NCBI GenBank assembly: GCA_903828515.1
Contig: CAIKMD010000003.1
Span: forward strand, 1-64,000
Source: an uncultured Rhodospirillales bacterium
GTDB lineage: Bacteria > Pseudomonadota > Alphaproteobacteria > ATCC43930 > CGMCC-115725
Direction: 5' to 3'
DNA: 64,000 nucleotides
Shown: positions 9,490 through 39,362 of the stretch, one piece after another
Layout: every line of letters begins with the position of its first letter
How positions within the stretch are numbered: position 1 is the first letter of the stretch
The notes under the pieces: model-generated
Databases searched by the model: none
The model's input: the letters and a program-made list of their open reading frames with translations, nothing else
What the model was told of the DNA's origin: nothing
Made by a program: the position numbers and the translations under genes

Positions 9490-10647
9490 ATGGCCAAGCA
9501 ACGGGTCGTGGTGTTGCATTTCGTGGCGCAGATGCCGATGGCGGGCATCGCCTGGCAGGCGCTGCAATATCTCGTCGGCCTCGAAAAGCTCGGCTACGAG
9601 GCGTGGTATGTCGAAAATCATGGCGCCAATCCGTACGACCCGCGCGCCAACAGCGTCACCATGGATTGCGCCTACAACGTCGATTACCTGAAACGCGCGA
9701 TGGAGCGTTTCGGTCTGGGCGAACGCTGGGCCTATTGGGACGCGATCAACGATGCCTATCACGGCATGACGCGCGAAAGAGTCTTCGAGCTCCTGGCCGG
9801 CGCCGATGCGCTGATCAATCTCTGCGGCGCGACGCGGCTGCGCGACGAGCACATGAAATGTCCGGTGCGGATCATGGTCGACACCGACCCGGTCTATGAG
9901 CAGATCAAATACGCCAAGGCCGATCCCGCCGCGCGCGCCTATCTCGACGCGCACACGCATTTCTTCACCTACGGCGAAAACGTCGGCGGACCCGGCTGGA
10001 TCGTGCCGCTTTGCGATGTGCCGTGGAAACCGACCCGGCCGCCCGTGGTGCTCGACCTTTGGCCGGAAGCGCCCGGCGAACCCGATTGTTTTTCGACCAT
10101 CGCCACTTGGGAGAACAAGGGCAAGAACATCGATTTCGAGGGCGAAAGCTATGTGTGGTCGAAGCACGTCAACTTCGTCCGCTATCTCGACCTGCCGCAC
10201 CGCACCGGTGCATGCTTCACGATGGCGATGCTGCCGCCGACGGAAACGGTCGAAACCGAGGTCACCGGCAAGGGCTGGAAACTGGTCGACCCCCGTCCGG
10301 TTTCGGCCGGTCTCGATGCTTACGGCGATTTCATCCGTGGCTCGCGTGGCGAATTTACCGTTGCCAAGGATATCTATGTCAGACCCAAAAGCGGATGGTT
10401 CAGCGACCGCAGCGTCTGCTATCTTGCCTCCGGACGTCCGGTGATCACGATGGCCACCGAGTTCGAACGTTTCTATCCGGTCGGCGAAGGTCTCTTCGCC
10501 TATCGCGACGAAGCCGGAGCGATCGAAGCGGTCCGGACGATCAAGGGCGATTACCCGCGTCACGCGCGCGCGGCGCGGCGGATGGCAGCGGAATTTTTCG
10601 GCAGTGACGGCGTTGTCGGGTCGATGATGCGCGAAGCCGGGCTATAG
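9490..10647 (+). CDS. Putative GT-B-type glycosyltransferase
   Basis: The 385-residue soluble protein begins VVVLHFVAQMPMAGIAWQALQYLVGLEKLGYEAWYVE, the Rossmann opening of a GT-B glycosyltransferase (glycine-rich loop followed by a helix). Its C-terminal half contains VAKDIYVRPKSGWFSDRSVCYLASGRPVITMATEFERFYPVGEGLFAYRD in family-1-like order: a donor-site SGWFSDR, then ASGRPVI, then a G-E-G-L loop. Context (GT-C transferase, methyltransferase and GT2 downstream) supports a role in surface glycan assembly. Donor and acceptor are unknown. The start is ATG 9490, shortly after greB. Confidence 0.65.
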   Translation: MAKQRVVVLHFVAQMPMAGIAWQALQYLVGLEKLGYEAWYVENHGANPYDPRANSVTMDCAYNVDYLKRAMERFGLGERWAYWDAINDAYHGMTRERVFELLAGADALINLCGATRLRDEHMKCPVRIMVDTDPVYEQIKYAKADPAARAYLDAHTHFFTYGENVGGPGWIVPLCDVPWKPTRPPVVLDLWPEAPGEPDCFSTIATWENKGKNIDFEGESYVWSKHVNFVRYLDLPHRTGACFTMAMLPPTETVETEVTGKGWKLVDPRPVSAGLDAYGDFIRGSRGEFTVAKDIYVRPKSGWFSDRSVCYLASGRPVITMATEFERFYPVGEGLFAYRDEAGAIEAVRTIKGDYPRHARAARRMAAEFFGSDGVVGSMMREAGL

Positions 10648-10683
10648 ATCCGGCACGTTTTGCGCGTGGAGAACGGGTCGGGT

Positions 10684-12357
10684 ATGTCGGCGACGGAGTT
10701 GCACAGCGACGCGCGAGCTCCAGGGTTCGTGACGCGATTTTCGTATCCTTCTTGGGACTCGATGGCGCTTGCCCTTTTTCTGGTGGCGACCGTGCTCGTC
10801 CTGCTGCTGTTCCCGGATTACGGCGTCACCTGGGACGAGGACATTCACAACTGGTACGGCGCCTTTGTTCTGAATTACTATGTGTCGGGTTTCACCGACC
10901 TGCGCAGCCTGCACTGGCTCGACCTGTTCAATTACGGGGCGATCTTCGACAGCACCGCCGCGGCGCTGAACATGGTGTCGCCGTTCGGCACCTATGAGAC
11001 GCGTCATTTGCTCAACGGCTTGGTCGGCGTCGTCGGCCTGGTCGGGACCTGGAAACTCGGCCGTGCCTTGGGCGGACCGCGCGCGGGTTTCATCGCCGCG
11101 CTGTTCCTCGCGCTGACGCCGAATTATTTCGGCCAGATGTTCAACAACCCGAAAGACATTCCGTTCGCCGCCGGCAGCGTGTGGTCGCTCTATTACCTCG
11201 TCCGCATCCTGCCCGCGCTGCCGCGGCCGAATTGGGCGCTGGTGGCAAAGCTCGGTCTTGCCTGCGGCATGACGCTGGGCGTGCGCATCGGCGGCCTGCT
11301 GTTCATCGCCTATATCGGCGTGGCGCTGGGTCTCTTCACCCTCTGGCGCGGCATCGAAACCCGCAGCTTGCGTTGTTTCATCGTCGACGGCTTTACCTGC
11401 CTCGGCCGCGTCTTGTTGCCGGTGACGGCGATTGCCTATCCGTTGATGCTGGTGTTCTGGCCGTGGGCGCAGCAAGCGCCGATCGCCAATCCGCTCGACG
11501 CGCTCGCCACCTTCTCGCACGAGACCTTCCCGTTCCGCACGCTGTTCGCCGGCCATTACCTCCCGGCCACCGATCTGCCATGGAGCTATCTGCCGGTTCA
11601 TATCCTGTTGGCCCTGCCCGAACTTATTTTGGTGCTCGTCGCGGCGGCACCGTTCGTCGCGATGTGGCTGCTGTGGAGCGACATTCGTTCGCTCGATCGC
11701 ACCCGTGTGCTCAGCCTCTTCGTCGTCGCGTTCGCCATCCTGTTCCCGGTCGGTTATGCGATCGCGATCAAGGCCGTGCTGTTCGACGGGATGCGCCATT
11801 TCATTTTCGTTCTGCCGCCGATCGCGGTAGCCGCGGCGTTTCTCGGCGACCGCGCGCTCGACCGGTTGCGCGGCGTGACGATGCGGCGCGCCGCGTTCGC
11901 CGCGCTGGCGCTCTATGGCTGCTTTCACGTCGTCACCATGGCGCGCCTGCATCCCGACGAGTACGTCTATTATAACGGTTTCATCGGCGGCACCGGCGGC
12001 GCCCAAGGCCTGTTCAAGCTCGACTATTGGGCTAATTCCTATTCCGAAGCGGTTCATGGCTTGCGCGAGCATCTGAAGGCCGAGTACGGCGGCGATTTCA
12101 TGGATCACGATTTCACCGTCGCGGTGTGCGGCCCACCGGGCTCGGCCGCGTATTATTTTCCACCGAATTTCATCTACACCGACGACCGCGCCAACGCCGA
12201 TTTCTTCATCGCGTTCACCAAGGACGATTGCGACAAATCCCTGCCCGGCACCGAAATCTATCGGGTCGAGCGGATGGGATCGCTGCTGTCGCTGGTGCTC
12301 GATCGTCGCGGCATCGTGGCCGGCGTTCGTTCCGGCCTGATCGCCGGCAACCGCTGA
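10684..12357 (+). CDS. Integral-membrane GT-C glycosyltransferase (ArnT/PMT-like)
   Basis: About 557 residues with 10-12 membrane segments. The first extracytoplasmic loop has the GT-C signature TWDEDIHNWYG (an Asp-Glu pair after TM1), followed by RHLLNGLVGVVGLVGTWKLGRALGG and FLALTPNYFGQMFNNPKDIPF as in dolichyl/undecaprenyl phosphate-sugar transferases. A periplasmic C-terminal part with no membrane segments spans roughly the last 130 residues. It probably moves a sugar from a polyprenyl carrier onto a lipid or glycan. ATG 10684 (MSATELHS) is chosen over an earlier start at 10660. The downstream GT2 gene could supply the polyprenyl-linked sugar. Confidence 0.75.
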   Translation: MSATELHSDARAPGFVTRFSYPSWDSMALALFLVATVLVLLLFPDYGVTWDEDIHNWYGAFVLNYYVSGFTDLRSLHWLDLFNYGAIFDSTAAALNMVSPFGTYETRHLLNGLVGVVGLVGTWKLGRALGGPRAGFIAALFLALTPNYFGQMFNNPKDIPFAAGSVWSLYYLVRILPALPRPNWALVAKLGLACGMTLGVRIGGLLFIAYIGVALGLFTLWRGIETRSLRCFIVDGFTCLGRVLLPVTAIAYPLMLVFWPWAQQAPIANPLDALATFSHETFPFRTLFAGHYLPATDLPWSYLPVHILLALPELILVLVAAAPFVAMWLLWSDIRSLDRTRVLSLFVVAFAILFPVGYAIAIKAVLFDGMRHFIFVLPPIAVAAAFLGDRALDRLRGVTMRRAAFAALALYGCFHVVTMARLHPDEYVYYNGFIGGTGGAQGLFKLDYWANSYSEAVHGLREHLKAEYGGDFMDHDFTVAVCGPPGSAAYYFPPNFIYTDDRANADFFIAFTKDDCDKSLPGTEIYRVERMGSLLSLVLDRRGIVAGVRSGLIAGNR

Positions 12358-35725: not shown

Positions 35726-36186
35726 AATTTATTGCCGCCTTCCTTCTGTTGCTTTCCGTCGCCGCGCCTGCTTTCGCCGTCGAGCCGGGCGAACGGCTGG
35801 CCGACCCCGCGCTCGAATCGCGCGCGCGCACGCTGAGCGAACAATTGCGCTGCCTCGTCTGCCAGAACGAGTCGATCGACGAATCGGGTGCGCCCCTCGC
35901 GCATGATCTGCGCGTTCTGTTGCGCGAGCGGATCGCCGCCGGCGACAGCGATGCACAGGCGGTGAAATTTCTCACCGACCGGTACGGGAATTTCCTGCTG
36001 CTGAAACCGCCGGTCGAACCCGCGACTTATGTGCTGTGGTTCGGTCCACTTGGTTTACTGGTCGTCGCCGCCGGCGGCGCGCTGATCTTTCTGCGCCGCC
36101 GCCAGGCCATGCCCGATGCCCCGCCACTCACCGCGTCCGAGCGAACGCAACTCGACCGGCTGATGAAGGAAGGCGAGGGCCGATGA
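35722..36186 (+). CDS. ccmH: Cytochrome c maturation protein CcmH
   Basis: The 154-residue protein has a signal sequence (FIAAFLLLLSVAAPAFA), the redox motif LRCLVCQNESIDES, and a C-terminal membrane helix (YVLWFGPLGLLVVAAGGALIFLRRR). This is the short, CycL-type CcmH, with the TPR part encoded separately as ccmI. The start codon is GTG 35722. It overlaps ccmI by 4 bp (ATGA). Confidence 0.95.
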   Translation: MKFIAAFLLLLSVAAPAFAVEPGERLADPALESRARTLSEQLRCLVCQNESIDESGAPLAHDLRVLLRERIAAGDSDAQAVKFLTDRYGNFLLLKPPVEPATYVLWFGPLGLLVVAAGGALIFLRRRQAMPDAPPLTASERTQLDRLMKEGEGR

Positions 36187-37028
36187 TGCTCGCGTTCCTG
36201 CTAACGGGCGTCACGCTGATCGTGCTGGCGACGGTGCTTGGCCCGCTGTGGCGCCAGACCAGGGCGCCGCCCGAGCGCGCCGCGTATGACCGCGCGGTCT
36301 ATCGCGATCAGTTGAAGGAACTGGAACGCGACGCGGCGCGCGGCCTGATCGGCCCGACCGAAGCAGCGTCCGCGCGGATCGAGTTGCAGCGCCGCTTGCT
36401 GGGCGCCGACGCGACCGGCGCCGCGCCGCAAATCGGCAAGCGGCTGCCCTTTCTGGCGATGGGCCTCGCGGTCACCTTCACCGTCGCCGCAGCCGCGCTT
36501 TATCTCCGTCTCGGCGCGCCGAGCATCCCGGATGCGCCCTTTGCCGAGCGCCAGGCCGAACGCGACCAGGCCGCGCAAGCCCAGGCGCAATTGGCGCAGA
36601 TCAAAGGGATGGTCGCCAAGCTCGCCGACGAGATGAAAGCGCGGCCCGACGATCTCGAAGGCTGGCTGCGATTGGGCCGGTCCTATGCGGTGCTGGGTCA
36701 GCCGGACGAGGCTGCCGCCGCCTTCGCCCAAGCCGAACGCCTGAAACCCAACGATCCCGGCATCCTGATGGCCGAGGCACAGGCGTGGATGACGGGGCTG
36801 CAAATCAGCGATCCGATTCCGGACCGCGCCGTCGACCTGCTCCGCCGGGTCCAGACGATCGACCCGAGCAGTCAGGCGGCGTTGTGGTATCTCGGCTTGC
36901 ACGCGGCGCAATCGGGCGAATTCGCCGAAGCGCGCGATGATTGGCAAAAACTGTTGCCGCTGATGCCGAGCGACAGCGACGAGCGCAGGACCGTGATGTC
37001 CGCGCTCGACGCGATCAAGGACAAGTAA
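36183..37028 (+). CDS. ccmI: Cytochrome c biogenesis protein CcmI (TPR)
   Basis: The 281-residue protein has two N-terminal membrane helices (LAFLLTGVTLIVLATVLGPLW and LPFLAMGLAVTFTVAAAALYL) separated by a leucine-rich cytoplasmic loop (YRDQLKELERDAARGLIGPTEAASARIELQRRLL). TPR repeats follow (DDLEGWLRLGRSYAVLGQPDEAAAAFAQAERLKPNDP). It chaperones apocytochrome c to the CcmFH lyase. The last 22 bases of its frame (up to the TA of the stop) are repeated at 38926-38947, where the neighbouring insertion ends. The stop is TAA here and would be TAG at the other copy. Confidence 0.94.
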   Translation: MMLAFLLTGVTLIVLATVLGPLWRQTRAPPERAAYDRAVYRDQLKELERDAARGLIGPTEAASARIELQRRLLGADATGAAPQIGKRLPFLAMGLAVTFTVAAAALYLRLGAPSIPDAPFAERQAERDQAAQAQAQLAQIKGMVAKLADEMKARPDDLEGWLRLGRSYAVLGQPDEAAAAFAQAERLKPNDPGILMAEAQAWMTGLQISDPIPDRAVDLLRRVQTIDPSSQAALWYLGLHAAQSGEFAEARDDWQKLLPLMPSDSDERRTVMSALDAIKDK

Positions 37029-38947
37029 GAGGCATTTGTAGACGCCGCAGACATCTTTTCGGCAAACCATTAGCTAGCAAGCATTATCCGCAGTTATTCT
37101 AGAATTGGGTAGTTGGGTGGTTTCGGGTTCAGACCAGTACGGTTCAAGCCGTCTAGGGGGATGGAATGGAAGCACAGAATAGATTGCTGCCCAATTGGTT
37201 TGACCGAATTCGAAGCGGCCAATTGCGATTGCCCCGATTTCAACGTTATGAGGCTTGGGGACCCAATGAAGTTGCAAGCATTCTTGAAGCGATGTTACGC
37301 GGCCTCCCAGCCGGAGCCGCTTTGATCTTGCAGGTTGGAGATAAAGAAATATTCAAAAGCCGCACTATGGCGGGTGCTCCCGAGCCAGCCGAGCGAGTCA
37401 ATGAGCATTTACTAGATGGACAACAGCGTCTCACGGCTCTTTGGAGAAGCTTGAACGATTCATACGACGACCGAACATATTTTGTTTATTTCGGCGAAGA
37501 CGAAGACACAAAAGAGCGTCGAATACTCGTCCATGCGCAAGCGCGATGGTTTAAAGAAGATGGTCGGAGATTTCCGGTCTGGGCAGATGACCCTAGCGAG
37601 ATACACGCTCGCGAATACATACCGCTGAGCCTTCTACGGCCGGGCGACGTTGGGAAAGTTATTCGGAACTGGTGCGATGCAGCGACCGATAATGACGAGC
37701 ACGCCAGTCGGGAGCTTTTGGATGAGGTGTACGGACTTCGAGAGACGGTGACGCGATATAATCTGCCCTATTTATCTCTTCCGGTTACCACGAAAAAAAA
37801 CGTGGCGCTCGACGTATTTCTAAAACTCAACACCAGTTCCGTAAAACTCACGCCATTCGATATAATCGTTGCAGAGGTCGAAGCCGAGACCGACCAATCG
37901 CTACATGCTTTAGTGCATAAACTGATCGCGGATGCCCCCGGCATAGACCGGTATATCGAACCCGAAAATCTAATCCTCAATGTTGCGGCAATGCGCGAGG
38001 ATCATTCGCCTACTCAGGCGAGCTATTCCTTATTGGATCTCACAAAACTCGTGACGGAATGGGACAAGCTCGCGGCAGGAGTTCGCTGGATGGTCTCAAT
38101 TTTGGAGGAGGAGTGTATATTCGATAATACACGTCTTCCCACGGTAGCAGTCCTTAACACGCTCAGTGCCTTACATGAACATTTGCCGCCTGCATTGGAC
38201 GCGCGAGGCAATGCGCTAACCCTTATTCGCAAATATTTATGGCGTGCGTTTTTCACGAGGCGTTATGAAAATGCTGCCGCCACAATGGCGCTACAAGATT
38301 TTCGCGGATTGCGTGATGCACTACAAAATAAGAAAGACGCAGCTCCCATTCCCATTTTTAACGAAAAAGACTACCCGCTCCCAACCAGTGAAGAGTTGAC
38401 GGGGGCCGGCTGGCCTAAGGCTAGAGATACTCTTGCCCGCGCAGTGCTAGCCGCCACCATCCGAAGAGGTGCTTTCGACTTAGCCGACGGTGAGCGGGCA
38501 ACAAAGGAACGCCTTGGGATGCGCGAATATCACCATCTTTTCCCTGACGCATTGCTAACGGGAGAGGAAACCGGTCGCTTGCCGTCGGAGGCCAGCTATA
38601 CGGCTCTGAACTGCGCGCTCATTACATGGCGTACAAATAGGAACATTTCAGCCAAAGACCCCTTGACCTACTTGCGTGAACGAATCGACCGGGCAGACTT
38701 GGGCGAAGAGGCTATTAAGGGCCGCTTGCGATCCCACCTAATTCCTTACGAACAACTCAACGTCGGCGGGTATGCAAAAATTGCTGATCCACAGACACGC
38801 TCGGCGCGGATCAAGAGCGATTACGATGTTTTTTTAGCAGCACGCGCTGAGCTTATGGTTCCCGTTGTCCAACAGCTTTGCAGCGGCAATGCTGACCTAG
38901 CATAGATAATCGATCAAAAAGCTTATCGACGCGATCAAGGACAAGTA
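37006..38947 (+). mobile_element. Inserted element bounded by perfect 22-bp direct repeats, carrying one defence-like gene
   Basis: 37006-37027 (3' end of ccmI) and 38926-38947 are identical over 22 bp: they begin TCGACGCGATC and end AAGGACAAGTA, then diverge. The 1,898 bp between them hold a single gene. They are visibly richer in A+T than either side; for example, 37441-37500 has only 24 G/C of 60, while the flanks are high-GC throughout. Removing the insert and one repeat restores a normal ccmI stop next to the convergent doxX-like gene. No terminal inverted repeats, transposase or integrase were seen. A 22-bp duplication is longer than most transposon target duplications and resembles the core (attL/attR) of site-specific integration at a gene 3' end. 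Confidence 0.7.
37166..38905 (+). CDS. GmrSD-like (DUF262 + DUF1524/HNH) putative type IV restriction enzyme
   Basis: The 579-residue protein has the DUF262 (GmrS-type, ParB-like NTPase) features: RLPRFQRYEAWGPNEVASIL (residues 21-40), LLDGQQRLTALW (82-93, with the DGQQR motif) and FLKLNTSSVKLTPFD (218-232). Its C-terminal part has an HNH/DUF1524-like pattern: YHHLFPDALL (455-464), LNCALIT (481-487) and NRNISAKDP (491-499). GmrSD proteins cut phage DNA carrying modified (for example glucosylated) cytosine. Here both halves are in one chain. ATG 37166 has AGGGGG 5 bp upstream. Codon use is AT-biased and clearly unlike that of its neighbours, which fits recent transfer. The phage target is unknown. 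Confidence 0.82.
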   Translation: MEAQNRLLPNWFDRIRSGQLRLPRFQRYEAWGPNEVASILEAMLRGLPAGAALILQVGDKEIFKSRTMAGAPEPAERVNEHLLDGQQRLTALWRSLNDSYDDRTYFVYFGEDEDTKERRILVHAQARWFKEDGRRFPVWADDPSEIHAREYIPLSLLRPGDVGKVIRNWCDAATDNDEHASRELLDEVYGLRETVTRYNLPYLSLPVTTKKNVALDVFLKLNTSSVKLTPFDIIVAEVEAETDQSLHALVHKLIADAPGIDRYIEPENLILNVAAMREDHSPTQASYSLLDLTKLVTEWDKLAAGVRWMVSILEEECIFDNTRLPTVAVLNTLSALHEHLPPALDARGNALTLIRKYLWRAFFTRRYENAAATMALQDFRGLRDALQNKKDAAPIPIFNEKDYPLPTSEELTGAGWPKARDTLARAVLAATIRRGAFDLADGERATKERLGMREYHHLFPDALLTGEETGRLPSEASYTALNCALITWRTNRNISAKDPLTYLRERIDRADLGEEAIKGRLRSHLIPYEQLNVGGYAKIADPQTRSARIKSDYDVFLAARAELMVPVVQQLCSGNADLA

Positions 38948-38954
38948 GCCGGGC

Positions 38955-39362
38955 TTACGACCGCTTCATCAGCCGGTCGACGCTCCACGCGCCGCCGCCG
39001 ACCAGGACGAACATGAAAAAGAAGAAGCTGTAAATCGCTTCGGTCTGGCCGCCATTGGCCAGCGGGAAAAAGCCGCGCGCCATCCGGTTGGCGTAGATGA
39101 AAAAGGCGACCGCCATTTCGCCGGACAGGATCAGGGCGACCCAGCGCGTGTAGAACCCGGCCGCCAGCAGAATGCCGCCGATGATCTCGATTCCGCCGGC
39201 CAGCCCGAGCATCGACCAGGCCTGGAAATTCGGTGGCGACGCGGCGGGCCAGCCGAAATGCTTCGAGAGACCGTGCTGCAGATAAAGCAGCCCGAGGAAG
39301 ATTCGCACGACGCTGAGCAGGCGCGGCGCCCACACATCGCGAAACGCTGCACTGTCGAACAT
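38955..39362 (-). CDS. DoxX family membrane protein
   Basis: The 135-residue protein has four membrane segments: LLSVVRIFLGLLYLQHGLSKHF (the DoxX opening), GLAGGIEIIGGILLAAGFYTRWVALILSGEMAVAFFIYA, and FFFFMFVLVGGGAWSVDRLM. DoxX proteins are poorly characterised and have been linked to thiol or quinone stress. Its stop lies 7 bp from the right-hand repeat of the insertion, so before the insertion it would have directly faced ccmI. Confidence 0.9.
   Translation of the reverse strand: MFDSAAFRDVWAPRLLSVVRIFLGLLYLQHGLSKHFGWPAASPPNFQAWSMLGLAGGIEIIGGILLAAGFYTRWVALILSGEMAVAFFIYANRMARGFFPLANGGQTEAIYSFFFFMFVLVGGGAWSVDRLMKRS

What the first reader, a model, noticed from the sequence alone, without database searches (positions are those of the whole stretch)
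37006..38947. Single-gene defence-like element at the 3' end of ccmI, bounded by 22-bp direct repeats
A perfect 22-bp repeat covers the last codons of ccmI (37006-37027) and recurs at 38926-38947. Between them is one AT-richer gene encoding a fused GmrSD-like (DUF262 + HNH) protein. Removing the insert and one copy restores ccmI beside its convergent neighbour. The arrangement imitates attL/attR of an integrative element, yet no integrase, transposase or terminal inverted repeats are inside. It could be a cargo moved in trans, a remnant, or a hitherto unnamed minimal defence cassette that targets the ccmI 3' end.
Basis: partly seen in the sequence, partly recalled or inferred. Interest (0 to 1): 0.85.

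Follow-up and report, generated by a model that had tools for sequence, protein, structure and literature searches.

The report
Lone restriction gene inserted behind ccmI
A single foreign gene for a DNA-cutting, probably anti-virus enzyme has been inserted at the very end of a bacterial housekeeping gene, leaving that gene whole and a short copy of its end on the far side; a few relatives of the enzyme sit behind other genes in a similar way, which hints that such genes may move alone.

Summary
A perfect 22-bp repeat (37006-37027, 38926-38947) brackets one gene. It covers the last codons and two bases of the stop of ccmI. Between the copies lies an insert of 51% GC in a 64% GC window, with one 579-aa gene and no recombinase seen. 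The protein is a BrxU-like, GmrSD-type (type IV restriction) nuclease: DUF262 plus HNH, motif residues conserved, pLDDT 93, best solved fold BrxU at Z 18.

New here: of 92 loci with relatives of this protein, five (window included) have the gene between two copies of the 3' end of a protein-coding gene: ccmI, smpB, an NHL-repeat gene, an MmeI-like gene and a small gene of unknown family. The gene differs each time, so ccmI is not the target as such. In two cases the copies differ mainly at third codon positions, as if the unit brought a foreign gene end. Enrichment over controls is borderline without the discovery case (p about 0.05) and not significant against other defence families (p 0.34).

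The closest known phenomenon is restriction genes inserted with long target duplication; CIME-like relics are second. I call it a new variant of a known kind. The recombinase is not identified; classical homing is disfavoured.

The parts
36183..37028 (+). ccmI, cytochrome c biogenesis gene with TPR domain; host gene, left intact
   Evidence: TPR_CcmH_CycH E 1.5e-19; orthologue in G001 at 64% identity
37006..37027 (+). first copy of the 22-bp repeat: last codons of ccmI and two bases of its stop
37028..38925 (.). AT-richer insert between the copies, no recombinase frame seen
   Evidence: GC 0.512 against 0.643; frames
37166..38905 (+). GmrSD/BrxU-like nuclease gene: DUF262 domain plus C-terminal HNH domain, 579 aa
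38926..38947 (+). second copy of the 22-bp repeat, orphan ccmI end
38955..39362 (-). doxX, convergent neighbour; no match in the sister species G001

Best explanation
The gene encodes a BrxU-like GmrSD-family (type IV) restriction nuclease that protects the cell by cutting incoming, probably modified, DNA. It reached this genome recently as a one-gene unit. The unit carried its own copy of a host gene's end, and a crossover between that copy and the end of the chromosomal gene (a Campbell-type insertion of a small circle or transient molecule) put it behind ccmI. ccmI stays whole because the unit supplies the last codons; the orphan end stays on the far side. The crossover enzyme is not in the unit: it is a trans-acting site-specific recombinase or, where the shared end is long, host homologous recombination. 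Shown: the anatomy, the foreign composition, the nuclease fold and conserved active-site motifs, and a similar arrangement at four other loci with other host genes. Inferred: the circular intermediate, the crossover, the defence function and its trigger.
For: Perfect repeat and single gene; foreign GC. Comparable cases among relatives of the protein: Dehalococcoidia L059 (53 nt of an NHL-repeat gene, ending 17 nt before its stop, 96%), alphaproteobacterium G222 = L042/L065 (344 nt of smpB to its stop, 96.5%), Kapaibacterium L111 (137 nt of an MmeI-like gene, ending 25 nt before its stop, 82%), Bathyarchaeota L079 (about 100 nt of an 86-aa gene, ending 39 nt before its stop, about 81%; the weakest, beside a contig end). 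Differences between copies fall on third codon positions in G222 (10 of 12, p 5e-4) and L111 (15 of 25, p 0.006), as between two functional alleles. Of 21 pairs of family members compared, 12 share the gene with little or no flank; four of these are at 79-88% DNA identity, where flanks should still be visible: L051/L127 from 11 nt before the start to the stop, L060/L062 the gene only, L131/L134 and L123/L130 100-125 nt more on the left. So a gene-sized unit moves and its ends are not conserved. Fold and motifs.
Against: Only 5 of 92 loci show it clearly. Without the window the excess over controls is p 0.05 (4 of 91 against 4 of 376) and against other defence families p 0.34 (4 of 91 against 1 of 60). 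Nine of the 21 pairs share their neighbourhood too, so the gene also travels or stays with larger regions. In L130, which first looked like a case, phage relatives show that native downstream sequence follows the upstream copy, so the far copy is a foreign relic. The third-position signal is absent in L079 (5 of 19). In G222, relatives do not tell which smpB end is native. 22 bp is short for host homologous recombination. No circle, recombinase or precise empty site was found.
Confidence: 0.45

Rival explanations
1. Relic of a larger integrative element (CIME-like): an integrase-bearing island integrated in the ccmI end, then lost everything except the selected nuclease gene and its att sites.
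For: A short identical core that completes the gene end is typical of tyrosine-integrase att sites (recalled); CIMEs are defined as having lost integration and transfer genes but kept attL and attR (passage of PMC5704250). G222 keeps a second gene without family match between the copies.
Against: No integrase-like frame seen by reading in the five clear cases (the inserts were not searched by family, except the G222 gene); 12 of 21 pairs of relatives share only the gene; no element with the same core in 384 other sampled genomes of the class or in IMG/VR.
Confidence: 0.27
2. Illegitimate or transformation-mediated insertion (or tandem duplication with gene replacement); the duplicated gene end is a by-product and is retained because it keeps the host gene whole.
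For: Repeat lengths vary from 22 to 344 bp and ends are not conserved. L059 looks like a two-unit array in which the end of the next GmrSD gene is repeated beside the NHL gene end.
Against: A perfect 22-bp repeat with no further homology around it (last line) needs a template-guided event.
Confidence: 0.15
3. The nuclease itself drives insertion: it cuts the end of a gene and is copied in by repair, bringing a replacement gene end, as mobile ORFs do in fungal mitochondria.
For: The nuclease is the only gene common to the units; the anatomy resembles mORF gene hybrids with duplicated C-termini (passages of PMC3630166); signs of an imported gene end in G222 and L111.
Against: If the cut lies at the 5' border of the repeat, the occupied junction still equals the empty site over 22 bp here, 33 nt in L059 and 52 nt in G222, so a homing enzyme cutting there would cut its own chromosome. 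The fold is that of modification-dependent restriction enzymes. Host genes differ between relatives.
Confidence: 0.1
4. Assembly artefact or chance repeat.
For: No reads could be examined.
Against: The window lies in a 574-kb contig; the repeat is unique in the genome; comparable anatomy in independent assemblies.
Confidence: 0.03

Closest known systems
Insertion of restriction genes with long target duplication (Nobusato et al. 2000; Furuta et al. 2010), known here only through passages of PMC3031569, PMC3874152 and PMC1643837
   Same: A restriction gene without a linked mobile element sits between long, variable direct repeats of its target
   Different: Here the gene is a single GmrSD/BrxU-type nuclease without a methylase; in the five clear cases the repeats run to, or within 40 nt of, the stop codon of a protein-coding gene; in two the copies differ like diverged coding alleles. 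Whether the published cases share these traits could not be checked
CIME, cis-mobilizable element (passage of PMC5704250)
   Same: attL/attR-like copies of a gene end, no integration or transfer genes seen
   Different: One gene only; no parent element, integrase or mobilization known
Mobile ORF gene hybrids of fungal mitochondria (passages of PMC3630166)
   Same: A nuclease gene placed with a replacement gene end, native end displaced downstream
   Different: Bacterial or archaeal chromosome; DUF262-HNH restriction fold; occupied border not changed
BrxU and other GmrSD-family type IV restriction enzymes (7P9K, 7P9M)
   Same: DUF262 plus HNH layout; best fold match, Z 17.9-18.2 over 485-512 residues
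   Different: 15% identity; rmsd 21.5, so the domains are set differently; Pfam GmrSD_C does not score; substrate unknown

Membership tests
GmrSD-family type IV restriction enzymes | N-terminal DUF262 (GmrS, ParB/Srx-like) domain with DGQQR motif | tested here: met
   Pfam GmrSD_N E 5e-20; D84-R88 = DGQQR invariant in 44 sequences; ParB/Srx-fold matches to residues 1-228, Z 5-7.3, rmsd 3-4 over about 90-98 residues
GmrSD-family type IV restriction enzymes | C-terminal HNH nuclease domain | tested here: met
   H456, H457, N482 and N491 invariant in 44 sequences; whole-length match to BrxU; residues about 420-555 match Cas9 HNH domains at Z 5-6.5, mostly rmsd 3-4 over about 90-115 residues, a middling score by itself. 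The Pfam GmrSD_C model did not score at E 0.001, while it does for the neighbouring gene in L059
GmrSD-family type IV restriction enzymes | cuts modified DNA, needs no methylase | not testable with these tools
   no biochemistry; no methylase frame seen in the insert
insertion with long target duplication | direct repeat of the target on both sides of a restriction gene | tested here: met
insertion with long target duplication | empty allele with a single copy in a close relative | tested here: inconclusive
   G001 lacks the gene at ccmI but also doxX, and is only 64% identical in CcmI
CIME | att-like sites kept, recombinase and transfer genes absent | tested here: met
   absence inside the insert by reading of frames
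CIME | derived from an integrative element and mobilizable in cis | not testable with these tools
   no parent element found
mobile ORF / homing endonuclease unit | insertion destroys or changes the enzyme's own cut site | tested here: not met
   border identical over 22 bp, 33 nt in L059 and 52 nt in G222, on the assumption that the cut lies at the border
mobile ORF / homing endonuclease unit | imported gene end more diverged than the displaced native end | tested here: inconclusive
   G222 smpB: 12 differences, 20 relatives do not decide, the fused copy slightly closer to them; the window copies are identical

The most novel reading that the evidence does not exclude
BrxU/GmrSD-like nuclease genes form a widespread class of one-gene mobile units of bacteria and archaea. 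They carry a spare end of a host protein-coding gene as their attachment site, need no recombinase of their own, and possibly use their own nuclease to provoke insertion: a prokaryotic counterpart of mitochondrial mobile ORFs whose product also works as phage defence.
Probability: 0.1. Interest if true: 0.85.

Novelty: new variant of a known kind. Interest (0 to 1): 0.5.

Why it matters
How solitary defence genes move when no mobile element is in sight is an open question. If one family repeatedly lies between copies of the ends of ordinary genes, those ends give exact unit borders, predicted circle junctions and empty sites that can be tested by PCR, and an automatic way to find other such units.

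Tried and rejected
Exact and inexact repeats on both sides of the gene in the family loci. Rows dropped after reading: seven loci with HsdM-type methylase genes on both sides (L094, L100, L104, L107, L108, L109, L117; named by reading, confirmed by Pfam for L104 only; four of them passed the threshold); L066 (a repeat in three copies, judged dispersed); L103 (AT-rich 17-mer). Set aside as ambiguous: L057 (tandem paralogues) and L130 (see evidence against). Weak, below threshold: L048, L099. G303 was left out of the count. For L065 and L111 the best-scoring frame was an antisense frame; the host gene was assigned by reading.

Which smpB copy is native in G222: 20 relatives aligned, not decided. 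Same core sequence elsewhere: none in 384 other sampled genomes of the class and none in IMG/VR. E. coli genomes by distant DNA search with the L125 gene: no match. Phage records: two weak protein hits covering 40% or less. NHL gene of L059 in viral contigs: no match. NCBIfam: no match for the protein. PADLOC: matches to PDC-M55C (E 1e-18), HEC-05 and NsnA. Controls L275 and L290 were read and are not clear gene-end duplications, but L275 stays counted as a control hit (L290 is under the threshold). Literature; no paper describing this gene family between duplicated gene ends was seen in their listings, of which only the top rows were shown. Nobusato 2000 and Furuta 2010 are not held and are known here only through citing passages.

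Full report
What is there. The window holds ccmI (36183-37028) followed by a 1.9-kb AT-richer stretch and a second copy of a 22-bp piece of the ccmI end (38926-38947), then convergent doxX. The stretch encodes one protein of 579 aa. GC is 0.512 in the insert and 0.643 elsewhere in the window. The 22-mer is exact at only these two places in the 4.8-Mb genome. The genome has three Phage_integrase-family genes, none on the window: two with the SAM-like N-terminal domain of XerC/XerD-type proteins, one with the arm-binding domain of phage/island integrases, on another contig.

The protein. Pfam finds GmrSD_N at residues 10-237 and nothing else at E 0.001. An alignment of 44 family members keeps DGQQR (84-88) and H456, H457, N482, N491 invariant. 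The AlphaFold model (mean pLDDT 93) matches BrxU best (Foldseek E 3.9e-14; VIA-align Z 17.9-18.2 over 485-512 residues, rmsd 21.5, 15% identity, so the domains are arranged differently), then SspE and DndI entries; its C-terminal part matches Cas9 HNH domains at Z 5-6.5 and its N-terminal part ParB/Srx folds at Z 5-7.3. The only PDB sequence hit up to E 0.1 is BrxU, 7P9K, E 1e-4. It is most likely a modification-dependent restriction enzyme; the substrate is unknown. That GmrSD systems may belong to mobile elements in defence islands has been proposed (passages of PMC4619093).

Relatives. A scan of 84,980 species genomes found 178 relatives, of which the best 80 were returned; they come from many bacterial phyla and two archaeal lineages by their titles. 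One search found four other alphaproteobacterial genomes among 385 (one of them, G222, is also L065; G303 was left out of the count); of 33 plasmid records two were used; of eight IMG/VR loci seven. Of the 92 loci tested, window included, 11 have a frame end facing the nuclease gene that recurs on its other side within 1.5 kb at score 44 or more. After dropping four with HsdM-type genes on both sides and setting aside L057 and L130, five remain: window, L059, G222, L111, L079. In these the copies run to the host gene's stop or end 1-39 nt before it. In G222 and L079 the nuclease gene points the other way from the host gene. L079 is the weakest: its left copy is close to a contig end and has premature stops, and its 86-aa host gene has no Pfam match.

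Controls. Neighbouring frames of at least 300 aa in the same loci: 3 of 316 (flank 1.2 kb; at the same setting the family gave 8 of 89 raw, of which two have HsdM-type genes on both sides; G222's copy lies beyond that flank). Other families in the class at 1.5 kb: other GmrSD_N 0 of 30, Mrr_cat 1 of 20, AIPR 0 of 10. Control hits were not curated away. Fisher tests: 5 of 92 against 4 of 376, p 0.017; without the window 4 of 91, p 0.05; against the other defence families alone, 4 of 91 against 1 of 60, p 0.34. Exact repeats of 18 nt or more within 300 nt: 3 of 85 against 4 of 1422 shifted windows; without the window 2 of 84, p 0.04. So the pattern is real at these loci, its enrichment is suggestive, and that it is special to this family is not shown.

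Are the copies a fresh duplication or an imported end? In G222 the two smpB ends differ at 12 of 344 positions, ten of them third codon positions, with one amino-acid change; in L111 15 of 25 differences are third positions. L059 has two differences, L079 shows no such bias (5 of 19), and the window copies are identical. So in two cases the copies seem to have diverged while both were coding, that is in two genomes. Twenty relatives of G222 do not decide which end is native.

Unit borders. Twenty-one pairs of family members were compared. Nine share their neighbourhood. Twelve share the gene with at most about 125 nt of flank; eight of these are at 68-76% DNA identity, where flanks could have faded, and four at 79-88%: L051/L127 from 11 nt before the start to the stop, L060/L062 the gene only, L131/L134 and L123/L130 100-125 nt more on the left. 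With nine labelled rows (the five plus L057, L130, L048, L099) the quick tree of 91 proteins needs nine changes, so the cases are scattered. In eight of those nine loci the nuclease gene is lower in GC than its surroundings; L099 is the exception.

A case that turned. L130 has a 66-nt copy of a phage gene's end, to the stop, on the far side of the nuclease gene. One search found 53 loci with that gene, L130's own contig included. Nine others with enough flank were compared: in five (L303, L309, L312, L314, L318) the first 99-165 nt after the stop match L130, in four (L307, L311, L313, L352) they do not. So L130's upstream copy is followed by sequence native to its phage group, and the far copy, followed by unrelated sequence, is a relic. 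L307 also has a second diverged copy of the gene's end. A gene-end repeat alone does not prove insertion into that end.

An array. In L059 the next gene (9969-11774) is a standard GmrSD gene (GmrSD_N and GmrSD_C). A 61-nt stretch over its end (11728-11788) recurs at 9788-9848, directly before the copy of the NHL gene end. That reads as two stacked units or as a tandem duplication with replacement.

Mechanism. The anatomy fits a crossover between a gene end on an incoming unit and the same end on the chromosome. No recombinase was seen in the unit, so the enzyme acts in trans or is the host's. Classical homing is disfavoured because the occupied 5' border equals the empty one over 22, 33 and 52 nt in the window, L059 and G222. 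A 22-bp core suits an integrase better than homologous recombination; 344 bp suits either (general knowledge).

Known relatives of the phenomenon. Restriction-modification genes inserted with long and variable target duplications have been described since 2000 (passages of PMC3031569, PMC3874152, PMC1643837). CIMEs are integrase-less relics with att sites (passage of PMC5704250). Mobile ORFs in fungal mitochondria bring replacement C-termini (passages of PMC3630166). The present case is nearest to the first; the solitary GmrSD/BrxU-type gene and the gene-end borders are what I take to be new, on literature searches only.

Noticed in passing
L059 9788-9848 and 11728-11788: The 3' end of a second GmrSD gene (GmrSD_N plus GmrSD_C) is repeated between the first nuclease gene and the NHL gene-end copy, like two stacked one-gene units.
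   Followed up: partly
L110 9824-10846: A DUF4917 gene lies between two copies (about 62 nt, 82%) of the 5' part of a DUF1156 gene: another possible gene insertion with a long target duplication, found as a control hit.
   Followed up: partly
L130/L302 and L303-L353: In this phage group the sequence after a tail-type gene is shared for about 100-165 nt by six contigs (L302 among them) and then diverges; L130 carries there a nuclease gene that, by DNA match to L123, came with about 100 nt of the upstream gene of a L123-like operon.
   Followed up: partly
L307 6837-7330: Second, diverged copy of the C-terminal 230 nt of the same phage gene about 250 nt downstream.
   Followed up: no
L042 11056-11763 (genome G222): 235-aa protein without Pfam or NCBIfam match, with an apparent N-terminal membrane segment, shares the smpB-bounded unit with the nuclease gene.
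   Followed up: no
window 38955-39362: doxX between ccmI and the CoA-transferase genes has no match in the only other species of the genus found, so this intergenic site has changed more than once.
   Followed up: partly
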